Origin: Opitutaceae bacterium
Lineage (GTDB): Bacteria; Verrucomicrobiota; Verrucomicrobiia; Opitutales; Opitutaceae
Assembly (NCBI GenBank): GCA_003151495.1
Contig: PLXR01000005.1
Coordinates: 300-64,299 of the forward strand
Direction of reading: 5' to 3'
DNA length: 64,000 nt
The position numbers were made by a program, and so were the translations under genes. Of this stretch, positions 7,051-64,000 are shown piece after piece (the first letter of the stretch is position 1; each line of letters starts with the position of its first letter). The notes under the pieces were generated by a model. The model saw only the letters and a program-made list of their open reading frames with translations, made no database searches and was not told where the DNA came from.

Positions 7051-7183
7051 CGGGGGGAATGCAGGGGGCGTCGGGGCATGCTTGCAATCCTTTGACGCCT
7101 CGCCGGGGGCGGGGTTTCAAGGCAAATCCGACGATTGCGGTTGATACGCCGGGAAACCCGGCTTACTTGGACCCATCCTCGTT

Positions 7184-9504
<2,321 letters not shown>

Positions 9505-49728: not shown

Positions 49729-49742
49729 CACCGGCCGCCCCC

Positions 49743-50414
49743 ATGAAAGCGACCCTGCCCATGTCCGCGGTCGTCGCCGTCCTTGGCGCCCTCTTGCTCG
49801 CAGTCCGTTCGCTCCAGGCCCGGGGATGGATCGGTGCGGAAGCCGGGCGGAAGCTGGTCCATGCCGGAATGGGCACGGTCGCCCTCCCGTTCCCCTGGAT
49901 CTTCCGGGACACGTGGCCCGTCTGGACCCTCGCGGTGATCGCCGCCGTCATCCTCGGGTCAATCCGGTCCGTGCCGACACTCTCAAGGAGGTACGGGTCG
50001 ATCCTCGGTGGCGTCGAGCGCTCCTCGCTCGGCGACCTTTTGTTTCCGCTTGGGGCGGCCCTGGCCTTTCAGCTGGCGGGGCGGGACAGGGCTGCCTACT
50101 GCGCCGCCATCGGGGTCCTGGCATTCGCGGACACGGCGGGCGCGCTTGTCGGCACCCGATGGGGGCGCCTCAGATACGCTGTCGCCGGCGGGCACAAGAC
50201 ACTTGAGGGTTCGCTCGCGGTTCTCTTTGTTTCGGCGCTCTGCGGCGCAGCGGGATACTATGTCCTCGGGCGATCCCTGCCAGGGGAGGCCGTGCTCGGC
50301 GGCCTCGCCGTCGGCGCCGCGGCCGCGGCCGTCGAGGCGGTCGCGGGATTCGGTCTCGACAACCTATTCATGCCGACGGCGGTCGTCGCAATCATGGTGC
50401 ACTGGCATCCCTAG
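49743..50414 (+). CDS. SEC59/DGK1/VTE5-type CTP-dependent lipid or polyprenol kinase
   Basis: A 223-aa polytopic membrane protein with the family hallmarks AGRKLVHAGMGTVALPF near the N-terminus, LGDLLFPLGAA, LAFADTAGALVGTRWG and GHKTLEGSLAVLFVSAL. Relatives are dolichol kinase, phytol kinase and yeast CTP-dependent diacylglycerol kinase. The substrate here is open: a polyprenol, phytol-like alcohol or diacylglycerol. Its place between HMG-CoA reductase and a CarS-like cytidylyltransferase suggests it makes a lipid phosphate for CDP activation. The ATG at 49743 is used; the track ORF begins inside the reductase. Confidence 0.85.
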   Translation: MKATLPMSAVVAVLGALLLAVRSLQARGWIGAEAGRKLVHAGMGTVALPFPWIFRDTWPVWTLAVIAAVILGSIRSVPTLSRRYGSILGGVERSSLGDLLFPLGAALAFQLAGRDRAAYCAAIGVLAFADTAGALVGTRWGRLRYAVAGGHKTLEGSLAVLFVSALCGAAGYYVLGRSLPGEAVLGGLAVGAAAAAVEAVAGFGLDNLFMPTAVVAIMVHWHP

Positions 50415-50420
50415 GCCGCG

Positions 50421-50999
50421 ATGTACCCCCCTCTTCTCACCGCCCTCGGAATCGTCGTCCCGGTATCCCTCGCGGGACTGACACAGGTCGCGGTCATCCG
50501 CCTCAACTGGCTTCGGGGCCTGGCCGCGATGCCGCTCGATTTCGGGGCGAGGATTCGGGGAACGCGCCTCTTTGGGGACAACAAGACCATGCGCGGCCTC
50601 GTGGTCATGGTGGCGGCCACCGCCGCATGGGTCCTGATCCAGCATGCCTTCCTCGTCGGAATGGGATCCAACGAAGCCGCCCTCCCCGCCTTCCAGCGCC
50701 TGCATCCCCTGGAATGGGGCGCCCTTGCGGGCCTGGGGTACGTGATCGGCGAGCTTCCGAACAGCTTCATCAAGCGCAGGCTCGGGATCTCGGCTGGAGC
50801 CGCCGCAGGCGGCGGCCTCGGCGTTCTCTTCTGGACCATCGACCAGGTGGACAGCGTCGGCGGCGTCCTATTGATCCTGCTGCTGGTCTGGACACCCAGC
50901 CTGCAGGTCGTGGCCGCCCTCCTCGGCATAACGCTCCTGGTCCACCCGCTGGTTGCCCTCGTGATGTTTTGCCTGGGTCTAAAGGACCGGATTGGATGA
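50421..50999 (+). CDS. carS: CarS-like CDP-archaeol synthase (DUF46 family)
   Basis: A 192-aa membrane protein of the CTP:2,3-di-O-geranylgeranylglycerol phosphate cytidylyltransferase family. Diagnostic segments are PLDFGARIRGTRLFGDNKTMRG in the first cytoplasmic loop and LGYVIGELPNSFIKRRLGIS followed by TIDQVDSVGGVL. In archaea CarS makes CDP-archaeol; bacterial homologues exist with untested substrates, so CDP-diacylglycerol or a CDP-ether lipid are both possible. It lies 6 bp after the kinase gene and just before a CDP-alcohol phosphatidyltransferase that would use its product. Confidence 0.87.
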   Translation: MYPPLLTALGIVVPVSLAGLTQVAVIRLNWLRGLAAMPLDFGARIRGTRLFGDNKTMRGLVVMVAATAAWVLIQHAFLVGMGSNEAALPAFQRLHPLEWGALAGLGYVIGELPNSFIKRRLGISAGAAAGGGLGVLFWTIDQVDSVGGVLLILLLVWTPSLQVVAALLGITLLVHPLVALVMFCLGLKDRIG

Positions 51000-51015
51000 T
51001 CTGCCCAACGCCCCC

Positions 51016-51576
51016 GTGAACCTCCCCAACTCTATCACCGTCTGCCGAATCATCCTTGCCCCCGTCATGCTGGTCCTTGCCCGCGCGGGAATGGAGCACG
51101 CCTTCCTGGCCTGCCTGATCGCGTCGCTGATTTCCGACATTGTCGACGGACAGATCGCGCGCCGCATGAACCTCACCTCGGAGTTCGGCTCAAAGCTGGA
51201 CAGCTGGGCGGACATGCTGACGTACGGCTTGGTGCCGATCGCTGCGTGGTGGCTCCGACCGGACCTGATTTCCAGCGAAAGGGCCGCGTTCTTCACCGCG
51301 GTTGGGAGCTACGCCATTCCGGTAGCGATCGGGTTTGCCAAGTTTCGCAGGCTGACGAGCTACCACACCTTCATGGCGCGGGTTTCCGCCTACCTCGTGG
51401 GGGCATCGGTGGTCCTGCTCTTCGCCCACGGTCCGACGCTGCCATTCAGGATCTCCGTGGCCGTCCTTGTGGCGGCGGAGGCCGAGGAGATTGCGATCAC
51501 CCTGGTGTTGCCGGAGCCCCGTTCAAATGTGCGCTCGGTCGCCCGCGCCCTCGAGATCCGGAGGGCCGCAGCCTGA
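51016..51576 (+). CDS. CDP-alcohol phosphatidyltransferase
   Basis: A 186-aa membrane enzyme with the full CDP-alcohol transferase signature DGX2ARX8GX3DX3D (DIVDGQIARR, then GSKLDSWAD). It moves a phospholipid moiety from a CDP-lipid to an alcohol such as glycerol phosphate, serine or inositol phosphate. I chose the GTG at 51016, giving the family-typical NLPNSITVCRI start; the track uses a TTG eight codons upstream that overlaps carS. It is the last gene of the lipid run, 195 bp before a tRNA gene. Confidence 0.88.
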   Translation: MNLPNSITVCRIILAPVMLVLARAGMEHAFLACLIASLISDIVDGQIARRMNLTSEFGSKLDSWADMLTYGLVPIAAWWLRPDLISSERAAFFTAVGSYAIPVAIGFAKFRRLTSYHTFMARVSAYLVGASVVLLFAHGPTLPFRISVAVLVAAEAEEIAITLVLPEPRSNVRSVARALEIRRAAA

Positions 51577-51770: not shown

Positions 51771-51846
51771 GGGCCTATAGCTCAACGGTTAGAGCAGAGG
51801 ACTCATAATCCTTTGGTTCAGGGTTCGAATCCCTGTGGGCCCACCA
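51771..51846 (+). tRNA. tRNA with CAU anticodon (Ile2 or elongator Met)
   Basis: A full cloverleaf: acceptor GGGCCTA/TGGGCCC with one G-U pair, D arm AGCTCAACGGTTAGAGC, anticodon loop CTCATAA on an AGGA/TCCT stem, T arm with GGTTCGAATCC, and encoded CCA. CAU could be isoleucine-2 (lysidine-modified) or elongator methionine; sequence alone does not decide. Accessory DNA of lower GC begins right after it, so it may be the attachment site of an integrated element. Confidence 0.95.
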
Positions 51847-52011
51847 TTCATAATCAGCATTTTATAAGATAATAAGTGACCAATCGGGAATGATGCTTGG
51901 CCGTTACTTGGCCACTTTAAGGGCTCTTGAATCGGCGCCCGTGGCGGTCTCTCTCCGCTACTAGACGCCCCGGGGTATCGCAGCCTCGGTAGAGGTCGAC
52001 GCGAAATCGAG

Positions 52012-52470
52012 TTAGATGGTTTTGTTGTAAACGGTCACTGCCTTGCGAACCGAATGGAGGATAGGCGTCGAATCATCATACCCTAGCAGGCGGCACACGA
52101 CCCGAGCAGTAATTCGCGTTGCCCCTTCCGGGGGCGGGCCAGCAAGGATCTTCTCGACCTCGGACATCTTGAATTTGTGCTTCTCCTTTCTTCCCGATCG
52201 TTTGTGGTCACGTAGGACGATTTCCGCATTCTCTCCGTTCCGGGCGCCGGTCCGCCATCGATCGACCCACCTCCGCGCCATTTGCGGTAAACAAGTTGCG
52301 GCGTCTGCGACATCCTGAATGTCCGGATAACGAACTTCGTCAGCGGCATACAATACTATTCGGGCGCGACGACCCGCCGCATCTCGACGTTGTGATCCGC
52401 GGATGCCATTCGAGGCCATCCGTTCCAGGTCACGTCTTTGGGCAGGGGTGATTAAAATACTTCGCGGCAT
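52012..52470 (-). CDS. IS630-like N-terminal HTH protein without a DDE domain
   Basis: A 152-aa protein that begins like an IS630/helix-turn-helix domain: ILITPAQRRDLERMA, RRARIVLYAADEVRYPDIQDVADAA, then MARRWVDRWRTGA as the recognition region. The catalytic DDE domain of the transposase is absent; instead there is a basic stretch (KRSGRKEKHKFK) and an unassigned C-terminus. It is either a transposase remnant or a DNA-binding regulator in its own right. It is divergent from the AlpA-like gene, with an imperfect inverted repeat in the gap. The ATG at 52470 is preferred to the track start. Confidence 0.55.
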   Translation of the reverse strand: MPRSILITPAQRRDLERMASNGIRGSQRRDAAGRRARIVLYAADEVRYPDIQDVADAATCLPQMARRWVDRWRTGARNGENAEIVLRDHKRSGRKEKHKFKMSEVEKILAGPPPEGATRITARVVCRLLGYDDSTPILHSVRKAVTVYNKTI

Positions 52471-52476
52471 CCAATG

Positions 52477-52556
52477 AGGTGAAGACTTGTGCGCAAATGA
52501 ATCAAGCGCATCACCCGCCGGTGAGTGCGCTTTCAAGTGAGAATAAGTCCTCACCT
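52477..52556. repeat. 14-bp imperfect inverted repeat between divergent HTH genes
   Basis: AGGTGAAGACTTGT (52477-52490) and ATAAGTCCTCACCT (52543-52556) are inverted copies matching at 12 of 14 positions, 52 nt apart. They lie between the minus-strand IS630-like HTH gene and the plus-strand AlpA-like gene, where operator sites would be expected. Confidence 0.45.
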
Positions 52557-52645
52557 TTGGAGATCGCCGGGACCGAGTTCATTAATGTGCGAAGCCCAAA
52601 GTGCGCCCGCACCCGGCTCAAGATTCACGACCGACCTCAACACAA

Positions 52646-52864
52646 ATGCTCCTTCGCTCTCCTTCTAGCCACGTCGCCGCCTCTGGCGACAACCTCCCCC
52701 GCTTCAGCCGCGCCAAGCCCCTTGCCGCGAGTCTGGGCCTAAGCGTTCGCACTCTCTTCCGCTGGTCCGAGAAGGGGTTCATCTCCCGCTACCGTGTGAA
52801 CGCCCGAGTGACCCTCTTCCAGGTTGACGAGGTAAACACATATGTGAAGGCGGCGCGCGTGTGA
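52646..52864 (+). CDS. AlpA/excisionase-like small HTH protein
   Basis: A 72-aa protein with a MerR-like winged-helix core: KPLAASLGLSVRTLFRWSEKGFISRYRVNARVTLFQVDEVNTYVKA. This layout (helix-turn-helix, small wing, then a DEV-type C-terminal helix) is that of excisionases and AlpA-like activators of mobile elements. The ATG at 52646 was chosen; the longer track ORF adds Pro-rich low-value sequence. The stop overlaps the next start by 4 bp (GTGA). Confidence 0.7.
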   Translation: MLLRSPSSHVAASGDNLPRFSRAKPLAASLGLSVRTLFRWSEKGFISRYRVNARVTLFQVDEVNTYVKAARV

Positions 52865-53976
52865 GCCTCCTTACCCATCTCTTTATGTACAAAAATGATA
52901 GCACAACATCCAATCCGGGAGCGGTCGACGACGGTCGCATTCCTGCCGACGAGGCCAACATCAACAGCGGCACCAGCCGTTCTAACATCGGAGGCACCCT
53001 CATCGCCGAGGTTGAACCCGGCGCACCCGGCGACACCGGAGCCGCCTTGGTCCTGAAGGGGACCGAAGACGTGATCGACTTTGAGGCTCAGGCACCATTC
53101 GCCCTCGTATACTGGAGGGACCCGGACGACCAGGTTTACATCGTCAAGTCACCCACCGGAGATGTCGGCTACGTGACTGAGGCGGCGTTGGACCTCCTCA
53201 CCCTGGAGGTCACAAGCGGGCTTGGGGAGACGATCCCGGAACCCGACGAGCCGAGCGCCACGTTGACCCTGGGGCCGGAACCCACCCTACCCGACGAGGA
53301 CGGCTCCGAACTGGACACGTCATCGGTCCCCATTCGCAGCCATACCGACGAAATCGCGATGCGGCCTCCCGAGGGTATCGTGGTCCAGGTGACGCCAGGG
53401 GAAGGCGGTCTCCTCTACTTGGTCACGGGCGAGCGCCTGACCCAAGAGAAACTCGACGACGCCCACTACGTCTACAACTTCGAGGGCGGTGGCTGGGCCT
53501 TCGTCCACAAGAACGTCCACGGGCGCGTGGGCCGTGTGAGAGCTTCCGTGGCGAGCATCGACGCTGCAAAGGCCTTGCGCCTCGCCGACACCGATACCGT
53601 CTGCAAGCTCGCGGAGGAGACCCGGGCCATCGTCCTGCCGCGGAAGAATGGACCCTCGGCTTCACTGACCGACTACGCCCGCACGTTCGCCGCCATCACC
53701 CTCTGGCCGAAGATCCTCGACGAGGCCAAGCTTAGCTCGGAGGACCTGGACGGGCTCATCTCTCGGGTGAACGACTGCATCTTCCACCACGGCCTGAAGT
53801 ACGCCAACGGTTCCATCGGAATGCAGGTGCCGACGTCCCAGGTCGAGGTAACCCTTTGTGGGACGGCCGATGCGCCTTGGGCGTGGCCGGGCGACCGGAC
53901 CGCGGAGGAGATCGCTGGTTTGGGCCTTCTTCGGGCCCTTAAGGCGTACCGCCAGGCCAACGGAGGGAGGAAGTGA
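52861..53976 (+). CDS. unknown 371-aa protein of the island replication module
   Basis: Not recognised. The first 60 residues are polar and of low complexity. Acidic, Pro-rich linkers follow (PEPDEPSATLTLGPEPTLPDEDG) and then a globular C-terminal half (YVYNFEGGGWAFVHKNVHGRVGRV, ITLWPKILDEAKLSSEDLDGLISRVNDCIFHHGL). It overlaps the AlpA-like gene (GTGA) and ends just before the primase-helicase gene, whose Shine-Dalgarno lies inside it. Its position suggests a replication or regulatory accessory protein. Confidence 0.75.
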   Translation: MSLLTHLFMYKNDSTTSNPGAVDDGRIPADEANINSGTSRSNIGGTLIAEVEPGAPGDTGAALVLKGTEDVIDFEAQAPFALVYWRDPDDQVYIVKSPTGDVGYVTEAALDLLTLEVTSGLGETIPEPDEPSATLTLGPEPTLPDEDGSELDTSSVPIRSHTDEIAMRPPEGIVVQVTPGEGGLLYLVTGERLTQEKLDDAHYVYNFEGGGWAFVHKNVHGRVGRVRASVASIDAAKALRLADTDTVCKLAEETRAIVLPRKNGPSASLTDYARTFAAITLWPKILDEAKLSSEDLDGLISRVNDCIFHHGLKYANGSIGMQVPTSQVEVTLCGTADAPWAWPGDRTAEEIAGLGLLRALKAYRQANGGRK

Positions 53977-53978
53977 CC

Positions 53979-55910
53979 ATGAATGCGACGCTGAAGGACC
54001 AGGCGGTAAGCATCGTGAGGTCGGACCCCGACGCCGTGCCGGAACTCTCAACAGTCGGCGGCGTGCTCAACGACATCGAGGTGGGCACCTATCGTGAGAC
54101 CGTACTAAAGATGAGGGGCGCCCCTGCCAAGGGCGCCCCTGAGGCCAGCAACAAACTCGAAAGCGAGCTGCCGGGCATCCGTTGGAGCGGCCACTTCGAC
54201 GATCAAGGGGCCGGCGAGCCGGTTGAACACAGCGGACTCATCTGCACCCGCTTCGGCAACCTCGGCGACAAGCGCGCCGACCTTAAGGCCCGGCTGGCTG
54301 CCGACGTCCACGTCGTGTCGGCCTTCGACTCGCTTACCCCGGCGGGTCTGGAGGCGGTGTTCCGTTGCGATCCACATCGTCTCCACTGGGAGTCCTTCGC
54401 TGCACTCCAGCGCCACGTAAGCACGGCCTATAAGATCAACCTCGATCCCGCCTGCCAGGACGTGGCCCAAATGTGCCCCGTATCGTTCGACTCGGACCTT
54501 CACGTCAACTACGAGGCGGTGCCCGTCACATACCCCGAGGCACCTACGCCACCGGAAGCGGCATCCCCCGACGAGGCAGGATATAACGGCGACAGTGGGC
54601 CCGTGATGCCGGAGGCCTACTTCGACCCGGAGCGTTCGGGCTATTGGATTCAAAACAACCGCAGCGAGTGGATCAGCATCAACGAGCGTCAACTCATTCG
54701 GCACCTGAAGGAGTTCAAGTCTTCGAAGGCAGAGTTCGGGGATCTCTCGCAGATGGAGGAGCACCTGAACCACCTCCAGATCGACTGCGACATCAACTAC
54801 GCCGGACCGCTGGCCGGGAAGACCGCTGGCCTCCTTGAGCACCACGGAAACCGAGTGCTCGTCACAAAGTCCCCCGAATTCATCCATCCCGGACCGGGTG
54901 ACTGGCCGATCCTCAGGCGGGTGTTCAACAACCTACTCGTGGATAAGGAGGCCGATCAAACCTCGTTCCTATTTGGATGGTTAAAATTGGCGCGATCTGC
55001 GCTCATCTCGGGCGTCTTCCGGCCTGGACAGGCGCTAGTGATCGCGGGACCGCGTGACTGCGGAAAGTCTCTCGTTCAAAGGCTGATCACGCCTCTGCTT
55101 GGAGGACGGATGGCCAAGCCCTACGGCTGGATGGTGGGGAAGACCGACTTCAACTCCGACCTGTTCGGAGCCGAGCATCTTGTGATTGAGGACGAGGTCG
55201 CCTCGACCGACCTCAGGTCACGGCGGATCTTCGGGTCAAAACTGAAGGAGGTCACCGTCAACGCCGACCAGGAATGCCACCCGAAGCACCGCCCTAAGCT
55301 GACGTTGCCCCCGTTTTGGCGGACGACGATTACCATCAATGACGAGCCGGAAAACCTTATGGTTCTGCCAGTCCTTGATGAGTCCGTGCTCGACAAGGTC
55401 ATCCTACTCCGCGCGAACAAGCGCCCGATGCCGATGCCGACCACCACCGAGGCGGAGCGTGTAGCCTTCATGAACCGCCTGCACTCCGAGCTTCCCGCAT
55501 TTTGCGCCTTCTTGGAAGCGTGGGAGATCCCGGACGAATTGAGCTCTCCCCGCTTCGGCATCACCCATTATCACCATCCCGACCTCCTGAGCGCGATTGA
55601 TTCCATGGCACCAGAAACCCGCCTTTGGGAGATGATCGAGACCGGTATCTTGCCAAGACACTCGGAGTGGGAAGGTACCGCCGCCGACTTGGTGAAGGAG
55701 CTCACGAGGAGGGGGGTACTGGCGGAGCACGAGGTAGACAAGGTATTCCCCTTCAACACGGCGTGCGCCGTCTACCTCGCTCGCTTGATGAAGGATTACC
55801 CAGACCACATCTCGAAGGGCCGCAACCGCCATGCCCATTATTGGGTAATCAAACGCGGCCCCGACTGGACCGGCCCGGAGACCGGGTTCAGCGAGGAGGA
55901 TGACCGGTAA
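53979..55910 (+). CDS. VirE_N/VapE-type primase-helicase of a mobile element
   Basis: A 643-aa replication protein. The N-terminal part has a VirE_N (BT4734-like) primase-type segment: HSGLICTRFGNLGDKRADLKARLAADVHVVSAFDSLTPAGLEAVFRC. The C-terminal half is a VapE/D5-like P-loop ATPase with Walker A VIAGPRDCGKSLVQ, Walker B EHLVIEDEVAS and later RTTITINDEPENLMVLP. Such proteins start replication of plasmids, satellites and integrative elements. I chose the ATG at 53979, which has GGAGG 8 nt upstream; a GTG at 53973 overlaps the previous stop. The clear Shine-Dalgarno contrasts with most chromosomal genes in the window. Confidence 0.83.
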   Translation: MNATLKDQAVSIVRSDPDAVPELSTVGGVLNDIEVGTYRETVLKMRGAPAKGAPEASNKLESELPGIRWSGHFDDQGAGEPVEHSGLICTRFGNLGDKRADLKARLAADVHVVSAFDSLTPAGLEAVFRCDPHRLHWESFAALQRHVSTAYKINLDPACQDVAQMCPVSFDSDLHVNYEAVPVTYPEAPTPPEAASPDEAGYNGDSGPVMPEAYFDPERSGYWIQNNRSEWISINERQLIRHLKEFKSSKAEFGDLSQMEEHLNHLQIDCDINYAGPLAGKTAGLLEHHGNRVLVTKSPEFIHPGPGDWPILRRVFNNLLVDKEADQTSFLFGWLKLARSALISGVFRPGQALVIAGPRDCGKSLVQRLITPLLGGRMAKPYGWMVGKTDFNSDLFGAEHLVIEDEVASTDLRSRRIFGSKLKEVTVNADQECHPKHRPKLTLPPFWRTTITINDEPENLMVLPVLDESVLDKVILLRANKRPMPMPTTTEAERVAFMNRLHSELPAFCAFLEAWEIPDELSSPRFGITHYHHPDLLSAIDSMAPETRLWEMIETGILPRHSEWEGTAADLVKELTRRGVLAEHEVDKVFPFNTACAVYLARLMKDYPDHISKGRNRHAHYWVIKRGPDWTGPETGFSEEDDR

Positions 55911-55912
55911 AC

Positions 55913-56054
55913 GTGACAGGGTGGCGGGGCATTGCCCCAAACCCCTCATGAGTTCCCGTATTGGATCTCACCCGCTTAAAGTATTAAACACCCTGTCACC
56001 CCGTCACGCTCCGGTTGCCAGCTTATTGCCCTCAATACCCCGCCACCCTGTCAC
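55913..56054. repeat. 22-bp inverted repeat with internal third copy; origin candidate
   Basis: GTGACAGGGTGGCGGGGCATTG (55913-55934) and CAATACCCCGCCACCCTGTCAC (56033-56054) are inverted copies with one mismatch, 98 nt apart. A third partial copy, CACCCTGTCAC, lies at 55989-55999. The left arm continues into the hairpin GGGGCATTGCCCC. It directly follows the primase-helicase gene and lies between convergent genes. Either an iteron-type replication origin or a large bidirectional terminator would fit. Confidence 0.6.
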
Positions 56055-56070
56055 ACGGCCCCAAGGGCGC

Positions 56071-56589
56071 CTAAGGTGAGATTCCGTGTGCCAGAAGCCA
56101 TTCGCGGCCAGCGGAGTTGATCCGGTAGCGGGCCTGACGCATGTGTCGGCCACCCAAAACACCCGGCTCTCGCACCACAAGTTTCCTGCCCCGTAGTATT
56201 TCCAAGTAGAGCTCAGCGTTACCCGGGGAATGGTTGAAATGATCGGCTACTTCAGCAAGGGTTGCGCTTCCTCTAGCGAGCATCGTCAGGATGGCCTTGG
56301 AATCGTTGGGTAGCTCGACCGCCTCGCTCGAGGCGACGTCGCGATGCCTATCGGTCTTGCCGGCGTCGTCCTCGAGCTTCATCACATGCCGCTCCAATTC
56401 CTCGATCTTCTGCTTGGAGGTATTCTCAAGGACCCTTAGTCCGTTGCTCAACCTCACCTTGTCCTCAAGGAGGGCTTCAATCTGTTCGCGGATGAGCGAA
56501 GCCTGATTCCTAAGGTTTGCGGCCTGAGATTCCTTTGCGTGCCTAAGGATCAGCTTATCCAGCTTATCTAGGTCATCGATGAGACTCAC
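56071..56589 (-). CDS. coiled-coil plus winged-helix protein
   Basis: A 172-aa protein. Residues about 1-75 are a long charged coiled coil (ASLIREQIEALLEDKVRLSN, IEELERHVMKLEDD). Residues about 95-170 look like a winged helix: SKAILTMLARGSATLAEVADHFNHSPGNAELYLEILRGRKLVVRE. It is probably a DNA-binding regulator or partition-like protein of the element. It converges on the primase gene across the inverted-repeat region. Confidence 0.68.
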   Translation of the reverse strand: MSLIDDLDKLDKLILRHAKESQAANLRNQASLIREQIEALLEDKVRLSNGLRVLENTSKQKIEELERHVMKLEDDAGKTDRHRDVASSEAVELPNDSKAILTMLARGSATLAEVADHFNHSPGNAELYLEILRGRKLVVREPGVLGGRHMRQARYRINSAGREWLLAHGISP

Positions 56590-57443
56590 GCGTTGACGGA
56601 CTATGGAAGTTTTCCGCCGCTGGCGAGACTGTCCTGCCGCTCCCCATGACGTAGACAGCGAGGGCCGGAGCCCGCTTGGACCCCGGCCCTCTAGGTGGTG
56701 CGACGCTTCTCTCGTTAGCCCGCCCTCGGCGCAGGGCGGTGTTCATCCAGTTCAGGTTGTCGCGCCATAACTACCAGCCTCCCTCAGTAGAACTGATGGA
56801 ATTGATAGGCGTTTCGCGTGCGGCTGAGCGGGGCAGGTAGATAAGGAGGCAGGGTTTCATCCAGTTCATTGACAGACGACGGCGGGTAGCGGGAGACATC
56901 CCTCTCAACCAGCCTGGATTACCAGCGAGGTAGCGTCGGGGTTTCATCCGCGTAGGCGCCCTTCGGGGACGCGGACGGGTCGTGGACCATGGAACCCCTG
57001 GGTCAAAACAACATTAGACCGTGACGAATTACAGCCGCACCAGTTTCGTGACCAGGGGCAGCCGGATTGCGCCGGGACCGCTAGGGCACGTTGTGGAAAC
57101 TCTGGGTAACAGGCGACGGGCTCCGGCGACGGGGTTCCAACCGAGGGGGACAGGCCGCTAAAGCATCTGGGAAGCCGACTAGCTCTCGTTGATACCCACC
57201 GTCGCAGTACCGCCACGCCGAAGCTCGAATAGCCGCCGACCGCGCCGTGGTACGCGTCAACCGAACACCTTATCAGGAAGTAGCAAAGGATTCATCACCC
57301 TTATTCGGGGTAATCCTATTCCGGGAGATATGTGTCCACTCGGCGGGGCTCATGGACACCAGGCATGTTCGCTTCGCTCACCTACAGGTCTATTGTCGAC
57401 GCCTTCGCTTCGCTCAGGTCGCCGGTAGGTTAGTTCGCTTCGC
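56590..57443. other. 854-bp stretch without a credible protein gene
   Basis: ORFs here (for example 56944-57216) have Arg/Ser/Pro-rich translations unlike proteins. TTCATCCAGTTC occurs twice (near 56742 and 56856) and GTTTCATCC a third time at 56941. The part from about 56940 to 57200 is rich in short GC stems. It could be a structured RNA, decayed coding sequence or a recombination region; none can be shown by reading. Confidence 0.4.
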
Positions 57444-57446
57444 TCA
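57368..57446. repeat. three direct copies of a 13-bp repeat
   Basis: TTCGCTTCGCTCA occurs at 57368-57380, 57404-57416 and 57434-57446, spaced 36 and 30 bp. The last copy overlaps the 3' end of the small membrane-protein gene. Function unknown. Confidence 0.75.
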
Positions 57447-57779
57447 CGCTTTACCGGGAGCACTGTCCTTAGGCTCATCCATGTACCCAAACAGTACCTC
57501 CGTTGCCAAACCCTTCTCAACCACCACGGAGGTGAAGATACGGTCGCTAGCAAAACCTGCCTGGTAAACCTCGTCCTCAGTGAACTTCAGCTTGGACATC
57601 AGGTGGACCACGGTACGTTGCGGGTGTCCGGTGTTCCGTTGCTCCCGCAGGTAACTCTCCATCAGCTTCCGTTTTCGGCGTTTCCGCCACCGGAATTGAA
57701 AGTAAAAGAAGGAAGCAAAACCTCCCGTGAAGATGGCGACGACGTCGGCGGCAAAGCTAATTATTCCCCTCATATTCAA
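57444..57779 (-). CDS. small single-pass membrane protein
   Basis: A 111-aa protein with one N-terminal membrane segment (IISFAADVVAIFTGGFASFFYF) followed by a basic patch (RWRKRRKRK), so the tail is probably cytoplasmic. The tail has VVHLMSKLKFTEDEVYQAGFAS, which could be a small helical domain. I do not recognise a family. It lies between the non-coding stretch and a divergent P-loop protein gene. Confidence 0.6.
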   Translation of the reverse strand: MNMRGIISFAADVVAIFTGGFASFFYFQFRWRKRRKRKLMESYLREQRNTGHPQRTVVHLMSKLKFTEDEVYQAGFASDRIFTSVVVEKGLATEVLFGYMDEPKDSAPGKA

Positions 57780-57922
57780 AGGCAGCCTATGCGGTACATC
57801 GGGCGTGGATTCAAGTGACTAGGCCAGCGGGCGGCAATCCCCATCAAGAAGAACAGCTCACGAGAAGGCTGTCGCTGTGATTCGGTGTTGTCGGCGAAGG
57901 CAACTCGATTACGCTGACCGAT

Positions 57923-58315
57923 ATGGGCAACAATAAGAAAAAGGCCGTGATCGTTACTGGCACCCATCATGCCGGTAAGAGCCGGACGATTAATGACCAT
58001 CTTAAGCCATTGCTGGGAATCCGACGCAGGGCTCGCTTGTTTACGCTGGGAGGACGAAGCGGTTGTGTCCTGTCACAAAGTTTCGAGGAATCGCGCAAAG
58101 ATCCACGAACTTTGATTCTGAAATACGTCAACCGTGAATTGCTCGTACTCGCCGCACGCCCTGAAAATGAAACACCGTCTTTGGTGCGAGATATCAGGAG
58201 GATACTTGCAGATGCCGGGTACTCCGTTGCCGAAGTTAGCATCTCCCCGGACGAAGCGGATAGATATTACGAGCAGCGAGCACACGTAATTTTTGATATC
58301 TTAAAAGCTAGATGA
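57923..58315 (+). CDS. small P-loop NTPase-like protein
   Basis: A 130-aa protein opening with a Walker A-like loop, VIVTGTHHAGKSRTIND, then a mixed alpha/beta pattern (RTLILKYVNRELLVLAARPENE, SVAEVSISPDEADRYY). The size and pattern suggest a truncated or minimal kinase-like fold with no visible partner domain. It may be an accessory cargo or defence-related gene; no evidence decides. Confidence 0.6.
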   Translation: MGNNKKKAVIVTGTHHAGKSRTINDHLKPLLGIRRRARLFTLGGRSGCVLSQSFEESRKDPRTLILKYVNRELLVLAARPENETPSLVRDIRRILADAGYSVAEVSISPDEADRYYEQRAHVIFDILKAR

Positions 58316-58362
58316 TCGATCTCGATTGCCGCCCGTGAGGTCTTCCTAGGCATAAGCACAGC

Positions 58363-58656
58363 GTGATTTCTCTGTGCGACATTCCGGATGCGGTACTGGA
58401 GCGTATAAGCGAGCGCGGCAAGAATACGGACGGTTTGTGGCTTGTTGAGCACCCCGCCGATCCCAACGATTTCATTCTTTGCCCGATTAATCGTCTTAAA
58501 CGTATTGCTGGATTTGTACGCGGCAGGCGGCGCCTTCCCCTCCCAAAGCACCGGATCTTTGCCGAAGTAGACGAGGACGGGAAAATTACACCTTATGTAG
58601 ATAGTCGCTTCGAGCCTACCCATAGGGAAGACACCCACCGCGTAGCCGACGAATGA
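58363..58656 (+). CDS. hypothetical protein
   Basis: A 97-aa ORF from a GTG, with a protein-like tail HRIFAEVDEDGKITPYVDSRFEP. No family is recognised. It is favoured over the overlapping minus-strand ORF (58267-58722), whose translation looks less protein-like and which crosses the P-loop gene end. Start uncertain. Confidence 0.4.
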   Translation: MISLCDIPDAVLERISERGKNTDGLWLVEHPADPNDFILCPINRLKRIAGFVRGRRRLPLPKHRIFAEVDEDGKITPYVDSRFEPTHREDTHRVADE

Positions 58657-58811
58657 GTCGATACCAGGGTCGGCCAGATGCGGTCCTCGAATAGATTCAC
58701 TTCGATCTGCTTGCAGAAGCAAGTCCTGATTGGCTCCTCAGCGGCCATGAACCGCGTAACTTATCGTGCAGCGCGCCGACTTAGGTCGGTTTGCTCAAAT
58801 GCCTTGCACAG

Positions 58812-59213
58812 TCATCGGTCTGTCACGAGGAACACTTCGCCCGTGGCGGCGACCCGCGCCAGCACCGACTCCTGCCCCAAATCCCGGGCGAGCACGGTGG
58901 CGAGCTTGACCAGGTCATGCTTGGCCATGCTCGTGATCTGGATGGTCAACGACCGGTCATCGTAGGTGCCGCCCGCCGGGTTCCGGTACCGTCCGCGGAA
59001 GGTGCTGCCCAAGGAGAAGCCGGACGTGATGCCCGCGTTGCTCATCGCCTTCTCCACGTCGTCTACCCGGTCAAAGCCCATAGGGATCACGATCGTGCTC
59101 ACATCCAAGGCAAGCCGGGCATCGGCAAAGTCAAATCGATACCGGCCCGTCCATTTGAGGTCAAAGGTGGCCTCCACCGGGCGCCAGTTGCTTGCCGTGA
59201 ACATCGTAATCAC
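58812..59213 (-). CDS. hypothetical protein, island cargo
   Basis: A 133-aa protein of alternating strands and helices (WRPVEATFDLKWTGRYRFDFADARL, STIVIPMGFDRVDDVEKAMSNAGI, SLTIQITSMAKHDLVKLATVLARDLG). I do not recognise it. Its ATG overlaps the stop of the upstream membrane-protein gene (59210-59467) by 4 bp, so the two are cotranscribed. Confidence 0.62.
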   Translation of the reverse strand: MITMFTASNWRPVEATFDLKWTGRYRFDFADARLALDVSTIVIPMGFDRVDDVEKAMSNAGITSGFSLGSTFRGRYRNPAGGTYDDRSLTIQITSMAKHDLVKLATVLARDLGQESVLARVAATGEVFLVTDR

Positions 59214-59467
59214 CGGCGGGCAAAGTCCCGCTTGAAAGCGTGCAACGCCTCCACCTTCAGCCGCCGCACACGGTCATCGTGCTCACGGTTCCCGGTGGTT
59301 TGCTCAATGTGGGCGGCGCAGTCATAGGCCTGACCGTCTCCGGCCATCCTAGCGGCAGGAATGGCCCAGAACGCGTGCTCTAGGCGCCGGGTGCCGTCCA
59401 CCTGGGCGTCGCGGTGCCGTTCTAGTCGGAGCCATAGGGCGGCTATCCAGGGGGCGAGGAAGAGCAT
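59210..59467 (-). CDS. small membrane-anchored hypothetical protein
   Basis: An 85-aa protein with one N-terminal membrane segment (MLFLAPWIAALWL) and a charged, helical tail (LEHAFWAIPAARMAGDG, DDRVRRLKVEALHAFKRDFA). The ATG at 59467 is preferred; the longer track ORF reaches back into the DUF2188 gene. It is coupled to the downstream 133-aa gene by a 4-bp overlap. Confidence 0.5.
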   Translation of the reverse strand: MLFLAPWIAALWLRLERHRDAQVDGTRRLEHAFWAIPAARMAGDGQAYDCAAHIEQTTGNREHDDRVRRLKVEALHAFKRDFARR

Positions 59468-59549
59468 GCCCAAGACGGTAACCGGGGCCCGACAAAAGCA
59501 AAGCGGGGGTCCGTCATCATCAACGGACCTCCCCCAATAACGAAGCGGG

Positions 59550-59756
59550 TTAGGCCTTACGCCACTTGTCCCGCCCACCCACGTCGGTATTGCGGACTCG
59601 TTCGACATGAGGGGCTACCCCTGGGTTTAGTTCCCGTGCGCGCTCAATGGCTTTTGCCTGAGTAGGTTCTACTGCGCTTGCCCTCTCAGCTCCGGCTTTC
59701 CTGACGGCATAGTCACCCTCGTGACGTTGCTCCACATATATTCTTTTTTCAGCCAT
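59550..59756 (-). CDS. DUF2188 domain protein
   Basis: A 68-aa protein matching DUF2188: YAVRKAGAERASAVEPTQAKAIERARELN. These small basic proteins are common on plasmids and genomic islands; their function is unknown. A clear Shine-Dalgarno (GGAGG, about 9 nt upstream of the ATG) supports the start. Confidence 0.78.
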   Translation of the reverse strand: MAEKRIYVEQRHEGDYAVRKAGAERASAVEPTQAKAIERARELNPGVAPHVERVRNTDVGGRDKWRKA

Positions 59757-59874
59757 GACTTTTTATCCTCCTGAATGGTTTACTGTTCTGGTTTAGCCAT
59801 CGACGGGAAGAGTCCTTATCCTCCGTGTCGTCCGCATGGCGAAAATTGGGCCGCCGTACATCGCGATAGCCTGG

Positions 59875-60150
59875 TCAGGGGCATTCCGGCAAATTTAGCA
59901 GGTTGTTCGGAGGATACCCATCAGCGCGCGTCTTCAGGTATTTCCGCGTGCCGTGGCTCGCCACTATGACATCCACTGAGACGCCGTTGACGCTGACGTA
60001 AAAGGTCCATTTCCCGGATTCAATTCCTTGGATGGCCTCATCCTCAGCAAGCTTCCACGCTTGGCCGTTAGAAATGCCGCCGATGTTTTTGATGCGCTCG
60101 TGGGGATCTCCACGGTCGTGTTTGTTAATGCAACGTACCTGGTGTGACAT
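59875..60150 (-). CDS. DUF3892 domain protein
   Basis: A 91-aa protein with the DUF3892 pattern: RCINKHDRGDPHERIKNIGG, then AIQGIESGKWTFYVSVNG, DVIVASHGTRKYLKTRADG and the family-typical ending PPNNLLNLPECP. Function unknown; often encoded on accessory elements. Confidence 0.85.
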   Translation of the reverse strand: MSHQVRCINKHDRGDPHERIKNIGGISNGQAWKLAEDEAIQGIESGKWTFYVSVNGVSVDVIVASHGTRKYLKTRADGYPPNNLLNLPECP

Positions 60151-60229
60151 GGTGTATTATGTTTGGGTTTCTTGGTTTCGTTCCTAAAGCCTTATTTGAT
60201 ATGAGTTTTCACCCCTTTTCCTTGGTGAG

Positions 60230-60598
60230 CTAAATTAGCGGCAGCCCACGAGGCGTAACGGCGTCAGCCGCTAAGTGGGCTATGTAGCAAAAGCACCAAT
60301 TGCTAGCCGCTGCCCGCGCATCGGGCGCCCAATTCTTGGTGTGTGGTCCGTGACTCGCGTAGACCGCGGCACCCGCAAAACTCAGGCTGTGAAAGAAATT
60401 CCGGTGATGAGGATCTGTTGCAGGCTCCAATAGGTCGGGGGCCAAGGCGACCACGCCGCCTGCAAGCGTGAACACGCCGAGTTCACCCCAATCGAAACGC
60501 CGCTCGGGATCGGCGAGCATTTGAAGCCCCTGCTTAATAAGGTTGATGCCACCACCTACCAATAAGCCGTGGCGAAAATGAGTGGATGCGTTGGCCAT
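60230..60598 (-). CDS. ydjM: YdjM-like membrane-bound metal-dependent hydrolase family protein
   Basis: A 122-aa protein of the YdjM/LexA-regulated inner-membrane hydrolase-like family. Metal-ligand candidates lie in LAPDLLEPATDPHHRNFFHSL and YIAHLAADAVTPRGLPLI, both family hallmarks. In Escherichia coli ydjM belongs to the LexA (SOS) regulon. Here the leader carries an inverted TGTAAGC pair also seen before the XRE gene, so control by the island repressor is plausible. Confidence 0.85.
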   Translation of the reverse strand: MANASTHFRHGLLVGGGINLIKQGLQMLADPERRFDWGELGVFTLAGGVVALAPDLLEPATDPHHRNFFHSLSFAGAAVYASHGPHTKNWAPDARAAASNWCFCYIAHLAADAVTPRGLPLI

Positions 60599-60618
60599 AG
60601 GAAATTTGTTCCTACACC

Positions 60619-60640
60619 TGTAAGCACACAGTAGCTTACA
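60619..60640. promoter_or_regulatory. inverted TGTAAGC half-sites before the YdjM-like gene
   Basis: TGTAAGC (60619-60625) and GCTTACA (60634-60640) form a perfect inverted pair with an 8-nt spacer, 20 to 42 nt upstream of the YdjM-like start. The same half-site occurs at the XRE gene start. Confidence 0.5.
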
Positions 60641-60654
60641 CGCAAGAGGAAAAA

Positions 60655-61353
60655 TCAGAACATCTCCTGCCCGTTCGCGGGCGGGTACATTTCATCTAGG
60701 CGGATCTGCGCGACAATTGGATTCACGTCAAAAATCTGAGCCAAGGCCGCAATGGCTTCCGCCCGTCGCTTGGGCTGCAGATAATGGCTTCCCGTTACAG
60801 AAGTCTTGTCCACGTAAATGGTTGCCGCCTTCACTAGGAGCGGGCGGGGTATCAGCAGAGTGCCAATCATCCGGTTGGCCTGATATTCCCACCACCGACC
60901 GTCGTAACCCTTTTTTTGCCCAGGCCTGATGTCATTTGCCCGGCATAATATTCGACCGTTCCTCAGGTCGGCATTGTCGATCTGAAAATGTCCTTGCTGG
61001 GCGTCCTGGAGAAACAAAGTGGCGTGGAGTAGCCCATGTCCGGCCTCGTGGGCGACGGTAGAACGAAAAAGTTTGTCGGCCGTTTCGGCGGCGAGTTTAG
61101 AACTGACGACTATGGTTCGCACAGAGCCATCCTTATTGAACACCGTCGCTCCAAGGACGTTGTCTCCCAAGTCTTGGTAGTCGACTTGGCACTTGAATCG
61201 GTGTTCCACGAACCGATCAATGCGAATGGCCGCAGGCTCAGATGGGAGAAATTTGGAATCCCTTAACTCTTGAAGCGCGATCTGATCGAATTCGGTTTCT
61301 TCAAACACGAGTCGTTGGCCGAATGCACTGCCCGAAGCTCGTACAACTTTCAT
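60655..61353 (-). CDS. immA: ImmA/IrrE family metallo-endopeptidase
   Basis: A 232-aa protease-type protein with the zinc motif HEAGH in TVAHEAGHGLLH and a downstream Glu in WWEYQANRMIGTLLIP. In ICEBs1 and Deinococcus such enzymes cleave an XRE-type repressor after DNA damage. It overlaps the XRE gene by 4 bp (ATGA), the standard ImmR-ImmA arrangement. It probably inactivates that repressor to induce the island; use as a toxin-antitoxin pair is an alternative. Confidence 0.9.
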   Translation of the reverse strand: MKVVRASGSAFGQRLVFEETEFDQIALQELRDSKFLPSEPAAIRIDRFVEHRFKCQVDYQDLGDNVLGATVFNKDGSVRTIVVSSKLAAETADKLFRSTVAHEAGHGLLHATLFLQDAQQGHFQIDNADLRNGRILCRANDIRPGQKKGYDGRWWEYQANRMIGTLLIPRPLLVKAATIYVDKTSVTGSHYLQPKRRAEAIAALAQIFDVNPIVAQIRLDEMYPPANGQEMF

Positions 61354-61715
61354 TTCTTCTTTGGATCGTAAAGGCTCCTGAGGGAATTGGCGACATCTTC
61401 GGTTGAAACGGCGCCGTCCTTAACGCGATCGACAAGTGTTCGGAAAGCGAAGCCTAGACTTGGGTTGTTTTCTATCATCTTCTTCATCTCTTGAGCCGCG
61501 TCACGGTGATCGAGTTGTTTTAAAAGGGCCACTGGGACCTTCAGTGCTTTAGAGAGCTTGGCTAGAATTTCATCGGAAGGATAGCGGCGTCCTAATTCGA
61601 TATCCGAAAGGAACGGAGGAGAAATACCCACCTCCTTCGAAAGTTCTCTTAGGGAAATGTCCGCAGCTTCGCGGAGTTCACGGAGACGTTCACCCAAGCC
61701 CTTTTCATTTGCCAT
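61350..61715 (-). CDS. XRE family repressor (ImmR-like)
   Basis: A 121-aa repressor with an N-terminal HTH: LGERLRELREAADISLRELSKEVGISPPFLSDIELGRRYPSDEILAKLSKAL. A helical C-terminal part follows (AAQEMKKMIENNPSLGFAFRTLV), probably the protease-recognised region. It is cotranscribed with the ImmA-type protease. A palindrome abuts its start codon, which fits autoregulation. Confidence 0.9.
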   Translation of the reverse strand: MANEKGLGERLRELREAADISLRELSKEVGISPPFLSDIELGRRYPSDEILAKLSKALKVPVALLKQLDHRDAAQEMKKMIENNPSLGFAFRTLVDRVKDGAVSTEDVANSLRSLYDPKKK

Positions 61716-61728
61716 GTGTAAGCTTACT
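61716..61728. promoter_or_regulatory. palindrome at the XRE gene start
   Basis: GTGTAAGCTTACT covers the 10-bp palindrome GTAAGCTTAC (61718-61727) immediately upstream of the XRE ATG. It is made of the same TGTAAGC/GCTTAC half-sites as the pair before the YdjM-like gene, here overlapping rather than spaced. Confidence 0.5.
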
Positions 61729-62004
61729 TCGGCTGATTGATCGATGTCAACGGGACCGTGAATGGCTGGACGAGTGGTGTACGGGTATTTCGGTCAGGGT
61801 TAGGAAATGCCCGGGGCCAAGGACCCCGCCCTATGACCCTCCGGGCAAGGAGACCGCCCTAGAAGGCCCGGACGCACCGGGGCAGCCCATCTACCCAACG
61901 TAGGGCGTCAAAACATCCGGATTGGGCCCAGAAACAGCAGGAAAGGGCATCCGGATATGTTTGATGAGCACCGGATTGCCACCTTCACGCCCATTTCAAA
62001 CGAC
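61729..62004. other. 276-bp stretch with no gene seen
   Basis: Upstream of the XRE gene. No convincing ORF. It contains GC-rich short repeats (CATCCGGATT at 61914, CATCCGGATA at 61949 and CACCGGATTG at 61969) and should hold the XRE promoter. Confidence 0.4.
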
Positions 62005-62109
62005 CTACTCGGCTTTGAACCTGCAGCCGCAGTGCTTGCACACCCGAGCATCCAGCAGCACGAACTCCGAGCAATCCGGGCAAACCTTGTGCGTCTGCGG
62101 GGAGTAAAG
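62005..62109 (-). pseudogene. zinc-ribbon C-terminal gene fragment
   Basis: The codons before the stop at 62005 read YSPQTHKVCPDCSEFVLL, then DARVCKHCGCRFKAE. This is the C-terminal double-CxxC zinc ribbon found at the end of many small membrane proteins. No N-terminal domain is present; the frame runs back into the methyltransferase gene. A truncated 3' end left at a junction is likelier than an intact 69-aa gene (62005-62214). Confidence 0.5.
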
Positions 62110-62137
62110 TGACGCCAACAACGAAATCTGAAGTCTG

Positions 62138-63109
62138 CTAGGAGGGCGGACGATCCAGTTCACCTGGAGGATAATTCTCCCGCGACGCGACATTAAGTTC
62201 CACTGGCCAGGCAAGAGAGGTTTCCGCGATCTTTCTTACGATGGATGCTGAGCCCAAGTAGGCCGGTGAATCGGGGAGCGAGTAAGTCGCCGGATTTGAA
62301 TGTATAGCGTGAATTCGAGATGGCTCGCCGCATACGGCCTCCTGAACCTCAAAGCCCGACGCCGCGTTAAAGATCGTTCGCCACGAATTGGTAGAGAAAC
62401 GCCAGAAATCCCATGGCTCCTCATGCAACGGCCACGTTTGATGAGAGCTATTGAAAACGAATCCACCGGGTCTCAGAACTTTGTTTAGCTCCAATGCAAC
62501 CTTCCACGGCATCGCTAGGTGTTCAAAAACCGACCTAGAAAATGCGGCTACAAAACGGTGACGCCCGAAAAGGGCTTCGAGCTCATGAGCGTCGCCCACC
62601 AAGTCGACATTTGGTCCGGGCAAAATATCCATACCAACATACTCAAGTTGCTGGGGGATAAACGACCGGTACGTAATCGCAGAACGCGCCCGCGAACCGA
62701 TCTCTAATACAACTCCCGCCTTCAACGTTCTGAGCTGGTCCACAAAATGATCCCAACAGGCGAAATAAGGATCGCCGCGGCACGCATTCTCAAGGGCCGA
62801 CCCACTTTCAAACGTCCTCCCTTTCTCAAAGGTGAAACGCAATGTAAAATCTCGGCCAAGGGCCCCCACTGGAACCGTCAACCATTCATCAAATCGACAA
62901 TGTGTCGCGTTCGGGTCGATACTCCCTGCGACATCCGGACTCGCCTGCCCAAAGCTGACTAGCTGCATAACAGTCGTTTGGGTCGAAAAGACCACATCGA
63001 CTCTAACAATTGGTGAGGAGCTATCGAAACACCATCCACGCACGCGAAGTCGTTCAAAATACGCCGAACATTCATCGATTTTCCATTGGAGCGACATTGA
63101 TTGGGGCAT
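62138..63109 (-). CDS. SAM-dependent methyltransferase
   Basis: A 323-aa protein. Residues about 1-120 are a beta-rich region (RLRVRGWCFDSSSPIVRVDVVF) like the modules sometimes joined to glycan-related methyltransferases. Residues about 135-270 are a class I methyltransferase: motif I VVLEIGSRARS, then YVGMDILPGPNVDLVGDAHEL, FSRSVFEHLAMPWKVALELN and KVLRPGGFVFN. The target may be a sugar or glycolipid; nothing here fixes it. GC content is well below that of the chromosomal part of the window. Confidence 0.8.
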   Translation of the reverse strand: MPQSMSLQWKIDECSAYFERLRVRGWCFDSSSPIVRVDVVFSTQTTVMQLVSFGQASPDVAGSIDPNATHCRFDEWLTVPVGALGRDFTLRFTFEKGRTFESGSALENACRGDPYFACWDHFVDQLRTLKAGVVLEIGSRARSAITYRSFIPQQLEYVGMDILPGPNVDLVGDAHELEALFGRHRFVAAFSRSVFEHLAMPWKVALELNKVLRPGGFVFNSSHQTWPLHEEPWDFWRFSTNSWRTIFNAASGFEVQEAVCGEPSRIHAIHSNPATYSLPDSPAYLGSASIVRKIAETSLAWPVELNVASRENYPPGELDRPPS

Positions 63110-63277
63110 TCACTACCACCTACGCACCAAGAAAGGCAAACTCCAGAACATTGTGATTCGATATCGGCGTCCAGCCGCCCTAGAGGTTCCGACTGGTCGA
63201 CGACAAAACGTGCCCTTGCGCCTCGGCCGATGAATTGGGCCGCTCCCAATTCCTCTCGCTCGGTATTCACCCGCCGC

Positions 63278-64000
63278 TTATGGCGAAGCGACGTTATAGT
63301 AGAGCTGCGACTGGTAAATATTATCAACGGGCATCCCGTTGTCGTTGGACGTCGCATAGACCGAATAGATACCAAAACCTGGCGGGATGAATCCGCTTTC
63401 ATTGCGAAGCAGGCATGGATTGCTCTTAAAATTCATGCCGCTAGAAGCAGGGTTCACTTGGACGAGAGTCCACGTTCCGGTTGTTATATTTGCCGCAGGA
63501 ATTTTGTAGATATCTATTTGGTCGCTGCCAATTGATTCGGAATACACTACGTAATAGTTCCCATTATCGGAGTCGTACGCAACATATGGCATACTTCCCA
63601 AACCGCCCACTTGTGAGAGGAAATTTGGTAGTCCTGCAGTCGACACCAGGGTCGGAGAGTTTGTCCAGTTAATGCCGTCGGCAGAGGTAGTCATGTAGAA
63701 AAGACCTTGCTGGCTGTCGGGAACGTCGAGGTAGAACATCACGTAGCTTGTTCCCGACGTTCGAATTACCGAAGATGCCATGGCACCTATGTTCGCAGTC
63801 ATCGGAGGGGCAAAGGTATTTTTGCTAAATACCACCGCCGTATTGTTGTACCAATTTAGACCATCATTAGAGAATGCGACGGCAATGTCGTTTGGGCCTG
63901 GAGGATTCGTAGGCCGCTCAGTATAATACATAGCGTACGAATAGCCGTTGTTGAATGTGGCTTTGATTACGCATGGATTTGACATCATGTTGGCCCCGTG
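63278..64000 (-). CDS. five-bladed-propeller-like (GH43/sialidase-like) protein, 5' end outside window
   Basis: At least 240 aa, open to the right edge, so the track start is not necessarily the true start. Repeating blades carry SNPCVIKATFNNGYSYAMYYT, AVAFSNDGLNWYNN, SSVIRTSGTSYVMFYLD and TTSADGINWTNSP. The S-x-D-G-x-x-W motif recurs as in glycoside hydrolase-like beta-propellers. No catalytic acid set can be assigned from the visible part. It may be the end of a larger secreted glycan-binding or hydrolysing protein. Confidence 0.62.
   Translation of the reverse strand, partial: HGANMMSNPCVIKATFNNGYSYAMYYTERPTNPPGPNDIAVAFSNDGLNWYNNTAVVFSKNTFAPPMTANIGAMASSVIRTSGTSYVMFYLDVPDSQQGLFYMTTSADGINWTNSPTLVSTAGLPNFLSQVGGLGSMPYVAYDSDNGNYYVVYSESIGSDQIDIYKIPAANITTGTWTLVQVNPASSGMNFKSNPCLLRNESGFIPPGFGIYSVYATSNDNGMPVDNIYQSQLYYNVASP

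What the first reader, a model, noticed from the sequence alone, without database searches (positions are those of the whole stretch)
51771..61715. tRNA-adjacent integrative element with repressor-protease control
Directly after a CAU tRNA gene with encoded CCA, GC falls, Shine-Dalgarno sites appear and the gene set becomes mobile-element-like: excisionase-type HTH, VirE_N/VapE primase-helicase, XRE plus ImmA pair, and small cargo genes. ImmR-ImmA control of ICEs is established; that this is a DNA-damage-inducible satellite or ICE is inference. No integrase or capsid gene is visible.
Basis: partly seen in the sequence, partly recalled or inferred. Interest (0 to 1): 0.65.

Follow-up and report, generated by a model that had tools for sequence, protein, structure and literature searches.

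The report
tRNA-borne genomic island in Opitutaceae
A 20.6-kb mobile DNA island sits in a CAU-anticodon tRNA gene of an uncultured Verrucomicrobium, with its integrase and second attachment repeat lying just past the window; it is a real but ordinary kind of element, and its repressor-protease pair looks like a stress switch for a cargo operon rather than for the island itself.

Summary
The integrative element is real and can be mapped to the base. The 3' part of the CAU tRNA (46 bp, 51801-51846) recurs exactly 20.6 kb downstream, beyond the window (equivalent 72391-72436). An intact tyrosine integrase starts 77 bp inside that repeat. A 23-bp integrase-arm-like repeat occurs only at the two ends. 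The element is 57% GC against 69% for the left flank. Its integrase clade is scattered through Opitutaceae-type Verrucomicrobiota, absent from 12 sister species, and in 17 of 17 named loci lies beside a tRNA 3' half starting at the anticodon loop (14 Asn; CAU targeting arose at least twice). No conjugation or capsid gene was recognised in the complete element, so an ICE is unsupported and satellite or helper-dependent transfer stays open. The XRE-protease pair is CapH/CapP-like and was not found in sampled related elements; its nearest relative precedes a ubiquitin-like operon, so it more likely controls adjacent cargo. The Shine-Dalgarno claim failed. Side findings: the primase active site is lost while the helicase looks intact; a related island carries CRISPR-Cas9; an intron splits this same tRNA anticodon loop in about 30 of 252 family genomes.

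The parts
51771..51846 (+). CAU tRNA gene with encoded CCA (ARAGORN: Met; sequence looks like tRNA-Ile2, inference); regenerated target at the left end
51801..51846 (+). attL core: tRNA positions 31-76, repeated exactly at window-equivalent 72391-72436 (attR, beyond the window)
51801..64000 (.). Part of the element inside the window; whole element 51801 to about 72436 (20,636 bp), integrase at window-equivalent 70941-72314 on the minus strand
51895..51917 (+). Left arm-like repeat GCTTGGCCGTTACTTGGCCACTT; its only partner (21/23) is at window-equivalent 72236-72258 near attR
52012..52554 (-). HTH_28-like ORF, weak
52601..52864 (+). Excisionase-like MerR/HTH_17-type protein
52861..53976 (+). 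371-aa orphan, unique in 250 family genomes
53973..55910 (+). VirE_N primase-like domain (DxD and GLK motifs lost) plus SF3-type helicase (Walker A and B present)
56071..56589 (-). Winged-helix protein, weak HTH_5
57923..58315 (+). Small protein with a P-loop-like GTHHAGKS motif
58812..59213 (-). 133-aa orphan
59210..59608 (-). 132-aa ORF, no family
59550..59756 (-). DUF2188 protein
59875..60150 (-). DUF3892 protein
60230..60598 (-). YdjM-family membrane protein
60655..61353 (-). CapP/ImmA-like metallopeptidase, HEAGH and ExxAN present
61350..61715 (-). CapH/ImmR-like XRE repressor
61718..61727 (.). Palindrome GTAAGCTTAC just upstream of the XRE start; candidate operator, unproven
62138..63109 (-). 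Methyltransferase-domain protein, cargo
63278..64000 (-). 3' part of a 906-aa Gly-rich secreted-type protein running past the window

Best explanation
This is a complete tyrosine-integrase genomic island (20,636 bp) in the anticodon-loop site of a CAU tRNA gene in an Opitutaceae-type Verrucomicrobium. Shown from sequence: the end points, the integrase with its catalytic residues, arm-like sites at both ends, an excisionase-like gene and a helicase module. Inferred: the integrase recombines the island's 3' tRNA half with the chromosomal anticodon loop, regenerating the tRNA at the left and displacing the old 3' half to the right; the excisionase-like protein promotes the reverse reaction and the helicase helps replicate the excised circle. 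Transfer would need a helper (conjugative machinery or phage in trans), because no transfer or packaging gene was recognised. Inferred: the CapH/CapP-like pair silences the gene string downstream of it (YdjM, DUF3892, DUF2188 and two small ORFs) until ssDNA or DNA damage activates the protease; it is a cargo switch and not, on present evidence, the excision switch.
For: Exact 46-bp repeat of tRNA positions 31-76 at 20.6 kb. PF00589 integrase 2.3e-12 beside attR, R-HxxR-H-Y conserved in eight homologues. Arm-like motif exactly twice in 49 kb and at both ends of two relatives' elements. Integrase in 49 of 250 family genomes but 0 of 12 sister species. 17 of 17 named relatives have a tRNA 3' half upstream of the integrase. 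GC 57% against 69%. Pair matches capH 1.1e-12 and capP 9.1e-8; nearest relative heads a Bub-like operon.
Against: No empty site or circle was seen; sister loci have lost synteny. The primase active site is degenerate, so the element may be decaying. In relatives xis and VirE follow int, whereas here they lie at the opposite end, so it is rearranged. Draft MAG contig. Operon structure and the pair's target genes were not shown.
Confidence: 0.9

Rival explanations
1. One reading: a DNA-damage-inducible ICE or satellite whose excision is directly controlled by the XRE-protease pair (ImmR/ImmA logic, as in ICEBs1 and TnSmu1).
For: The pair is intact and lies inside the element; ImmR/ImmA control of ICEs is established (PMC10233336).
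Against: No conjugation gene recognised in the complete element; the pair was not found in sampled related elements; no shared operator was seen between XRE and xis/int promoters; the pair is CapH/CapP-like.
Confidence: 0.15
2. A phage satellite (PICI or tycheposon-like) packaged by a helper phage.
For: tRNA site, integrase, xis, primase-helicase module, variable cargo and no structural genes.
Against: No terminase, capsid-remodelling or cos/pac signal identified; integrase clade not found in the viral contigs and only below 30% identity in phages; no PF03237 terminase in this draft genome.
Confidence: 0.25
3. A helper-mobilised integrative element (IME) moved by a conjugative system in trans.
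For: A TraG-type coupling-protein domain exists elsewhere in the genome (C92); no transfer genes recognised in cis.
Against: No relaxase or oriT identified on the element.
Confidence: 0.3
4. A vertically inherited, normal chromosomal region that merely follows a tRNA.
For: Sister species show little conserved gene order around this tRNA in any case.
Against: Exact att duplication, integrase placement and end-specific arm sites.
Confidence: 0.02

Closest known systems
tDNA genomic islands of the Islander type, anticodon-centred site A (PMC4383910)
   Same: Regenerated tRNA, displaced 3' tDNA fragment in the same orientation, tyrosine integrase inside, 2-200 kb
   Different: Own integrase clade in Verrucomicrobiota; excisionase-like gene and VirE module at the end opposite the integrase
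CapH + CapP regulatory pair (PMC13373217)
   Same: Adjacent XRE repressor and HExxH protease, PADLOC capH and capP matches; nearest relative heads a Bub-like operon
   Different: Here followed by YdjM, DUF3892, DUF2188 and orphans, no known immune operon; activity untested
ImmR/ImmA of ICEBs1 and TnSmu1 (PMC10233336)
   Same: Two-gene repressor-metalloprotease logic on an integrated element
   Different: No conjugation module recognised; pair is CapH/CapP-like and not part of the related elements' shared genes
Phage satellites such as PICIs and tycheposons (PMC11389934)
   Same: tRNA-inserted or integrase-bearing, primase-helicase module, variable cargo, no structural genes
   Different: No packaging genes found; homology to those families was not tested; different host phylum

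Membership tests
tDNA genomic island (Islander definition) | Intact tDNA at one end and its 3' fragment downstream in the same orientation | tested here: met
   46-bp exact copy, same strand, 20.6 kb apart
tDNA genomic island (Islander definition) | Tyrosine integrase gene inside the interval | tested here: met
   PF00589 2.3e-12 at window-equivalent 70941-72314
tDNA genomic island (Islander definition) | Excision restores an empty site | not testable with these tools
   No empty site in relatives; synteny lost
ICE | Relaxase, coupling protein and T4SS genes in the element | tested here: not met
   None recognised by Pfam, PHROGs or NCBIfam among the main ORFs
CapH/CapP pair | XRE repressor next to an HExxH peptidase matching the family models | tested here: met
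   capH 1.1e-12, capP 9.1e-8; HEAGH and ExxAN intact
CapH/CapP pair | ssDNA-stimulated cleavage of the repressor and derepression of the adjacent operon | not testable with these tools
   needs biochemistry
Phage satellite (PICI/tycheposon-like) | Packaging or helper-hijack genes, or cos/pac of a helper | tested here: inconclusive
   None recognised in the element; not found in viral contigs; cos/pac not examined

The most novel reading that the evidence does not exclude
The anticodon loop of this CAU tRNA is a contested site. One integrase clade, using a loose ACT-NNN-AATC core, has moved from tRNA-Asn to the CAU tRNA at least twice, while an Azoarcus-like intron inserted at U33^C34, inside that core, in about 30 of 252 family genomes would split the attachment site. 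The intron may therefore act as immunity against such islands, a bacterial counterpart of Randau and Soll's proposal for disrupted tRNA genes. The exclusion itself was not tested.
Probability: 0.2. Interest if true: 0.65.

Novelty: new member of a known kind. Interest (0 to 1): 0.42.

Why it matters
It documents a precisely mapped family of tRNA-targeting mobile islands in Verrucomicrobiota that is missing from the phage and viral collections searched, and shows repeated target switching by one integrase clade (Asn to Ile2, Lys and Phe). A related island carries a CRISPR-Cas9 locus and this one a CapH/CapP-like stress switch, so the family may carry immune modules between cells. The overlap of its attachment core with a tRNA intron site makes the old idea that introns protect tRNA genes from integration testable in bacteria.

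Tried and rejected
Shine-Dalgarno shift at the boundary: no difference. Sigma-70-type promoters: not above shuffle expectation. Shared operator between XRE and xis/int promoters: none seen. SAM-lyase (anti-restriction) guess for the 133-aa protein: E 0.043 in Pfam, no PDB or phage support, orphan in the family, model pLDDT 45: dropped, no fold search made. PDB sequence hits for protease, helicase and integrase: none. Composite of two unrelated elements: both ends carry the same arm-like motif and an xis of the integrase's family, so one rearranged element is preferred. Empty site in sister species: not found because synteny is gone. Rfam did not recognise the tRNA insert of G006 as a group I intron; that classification rests on splice-site rules, a conserved core, paired changes in the putative P7 and a sequence recalled from memory.

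Full report
1. Boundaries. The window is contig C114:300-64299 of a 4.1-Mb, 80%-complete draft genome. Searching that genome with the tRNA region found an exact 46-bp copy of tRNA positions 31-76 at C114:72690-72735, window-equivalent 72391-72436, same strand. The interval is 20,636 bp at 57.2% GC; the window left of the tRNA is 69.0%. A third, decayed fragment (26-29 bp, 92-93%) lies at C114:78056-78084. From about 42 bp beyond it the sequence is 74-79% identical to sister genomes, starting with a DUF748 gene. So there is one clean element plus a 5.3-kb segment, perhaps an older island, between it and conserved chromosome.

2. Integrase and arms. A 457-aa Phage_integrase protein (PF00589, 2.3e-12) starts 77 bp inside attR and reads away from it. 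The R, HxxR, H and Y residues are conserved among eight sequences 59-66% identical to it. A 23-bp motif with two CTTGGCC units occurs exactly twice in 49 kb at up to six mismatches: 49 bp inside attL and about 130 bp inside attR, 21/23 matching; block shuffles tested at up to five mismatches gave none. The motif is also near the integrase start in several relatives and at both ends of elements in L143 and L166. These look like integrase arm-type sites (inference). G006, a sister species, keeps a 50-bp, 84% copy of the left arm at nearly the same spacing after a tRNA 3' fragment, a trace of a related element.

3. Distribution. Integrase relatives (E<=1e-20) are in 49 of 250 family genomes and in none of 12 same-genus species. 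Named relatives include Opitutaceae MAGs, Geminisphaera, Ereboglobus, Candidatus Didemnitutus and MAGs labelled Verrucomicrobia(ota), Opitutia or Pedosphaera; the host is therefore taken to be an Opitutaceae-type Verrucomicrobium (inference). No relative was found in the viral contigs scanned; phage hits are below 30% identity. In 17 of 17 named loci a tRNA 3' half starting at the anticodon loop lies upstream of the integrase on the other strand: 14 Asn, one each Lys, Phe and Ile2. The tree places the window's integrase among Asn-targeting ones and apart from the other CAU-targeting member of the clade, so CAU targeting arose at least twice in it (three changes counting a distant long-branch row). 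The shared core reads ACT-NNN-AATC in most of them. Relatives delimited by tRNA and repeat: tRNA-Phe about 10.8 kb, tRNA-His 8.1 kb, tRNA-Leu 13.2 kb.

4. Gene content. At the left end: xis-like HTH, an orphan, then VirE_N plus SF3-type helicase. In 14 of 14 alignable VirE_N homologues the DxD pair and the GLK/GVK motif are kept; the window protein has TRFG and GLE instead, while Walker A (GPRDCGKS) and B (VIEDE) remain (for the alignment; motifs read from the sequence). So the primase site is probably dead and the helicase probably alive. Cargo: winged helix, P-loop-like, DUF2188, DUF3892, YdjM, methyltransferase, and beyond the window a Gly-rich protein, a small XRE protein, two metallophosphatases and an HNH-DUF3298 protein. 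No relaxase, coupling protein, terminase or capsid was recognised.

5. The repressor-protease pair. XRE matches capH (1.1e-12) and the protease capP (9.1e-8). HEAGH and the ExxAN glutamate are intact and invariant in homologues. In 250 family genomes only four, including this one, have the protease. In the other three the XRE gene is beside it; the closest (50-52% identical) is followed by Multi_ubiq/Prok-E2 and ThiF/JAB genes, a Bub-like operon. Literature: CapH+CapP control adjacent operons, and CapW or CapH+CapP accompany 219 of 544 Bub operons (PMC13373217). This favours a cargo switch over an excision switch. A palindrome GTAAGCTTAC sits just upstream of the XRE start and nowhere else in the region. 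Which genes the pair controls is inferred, not shown.

6. tRNA intron. Sister G006 has the same tRNA split at U33^C34 by a 226-nt insert, exon ending in U and insert ending in G. Homologous inserts occur in about 30 of 252 family genomes; the 15 examined all lie in a CAU tRNA gene at that position. The core is strongly conserved, and the putative P7 strands change together (GAACAU/AUGUUC in G006, GACCAU/AUGGUC in many others). It resembles the Azoarcus pre-tRNA-Ile group I intron from memory; Rfam gave no group I call. The insert would split the integrase core. Whether it excludes islands was not tested; the idea that disrupted tRNA genes protect against integration was put forward by Randau and Soll (cited in PMC4390854).

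7. Verdict. A well-supported, complete tRNA genomic island; a new member of a known kind. ICE status and element-level damage control are not supported; how it transfers is unknown.

Noticed in passing
L049:6961-7186 (G006); L180-L193: 226-nt intron-like insert between U33 and C34 of the CAU tRNA, with homologues at the same position across the family (about 30 of 252 genomes); Azoarcus-like group I intron by inspection, not recognised by Rfam.
   Followed up: partly
L145:2524-15855 (G119, complete genome): 13.2-kb relative island in tRNA-Leu(UAA) with integrase, xis-like and VirE-helicase genes carries a Cas9-like protein (HNH_4, RuvC_III), Cas1, Cas2 and a repeat array as cargo.
   Followed up: partly
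L173:138-3971 (G217): Closest XRE-protease relatives head a Multi_ubiq/Prok-E2 plus ThiF/JAB operon, a candidate Bub operon.
   Followed up: partly
G006 contig C11, 22-56 kb (L049, L076): At least five 3' fragments and two 5' halves of the CAU tRNA: a serial-insertion array in a sister species.
   Followed up: partly
53973-55910: VirE_N domain lacks the DxD and GLK motifs kept in 14 of 14 alignable homologues; helicase motifs present.
   Followed up: yes
L007:2938-7107 (beyond window, outside attR): 1389-aa collagen-repeat protein ending in a Peptidase_S74 domain, in a 5.3-kb segment between attR and a decayed third att fragment.
   Followed up: partly
48439-51576: HMG-CoA-reductase-like, dolichol-kinase-like and CDP-alcohol-phosphatidyltransferase-like gene run left of the tRNA (names from reading, not searched); the last gene is only a fragment or distant in other genus members.
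   Followed up: no
7175-7290: TPP riboswitch just above the gathering score.
   Followed up: no
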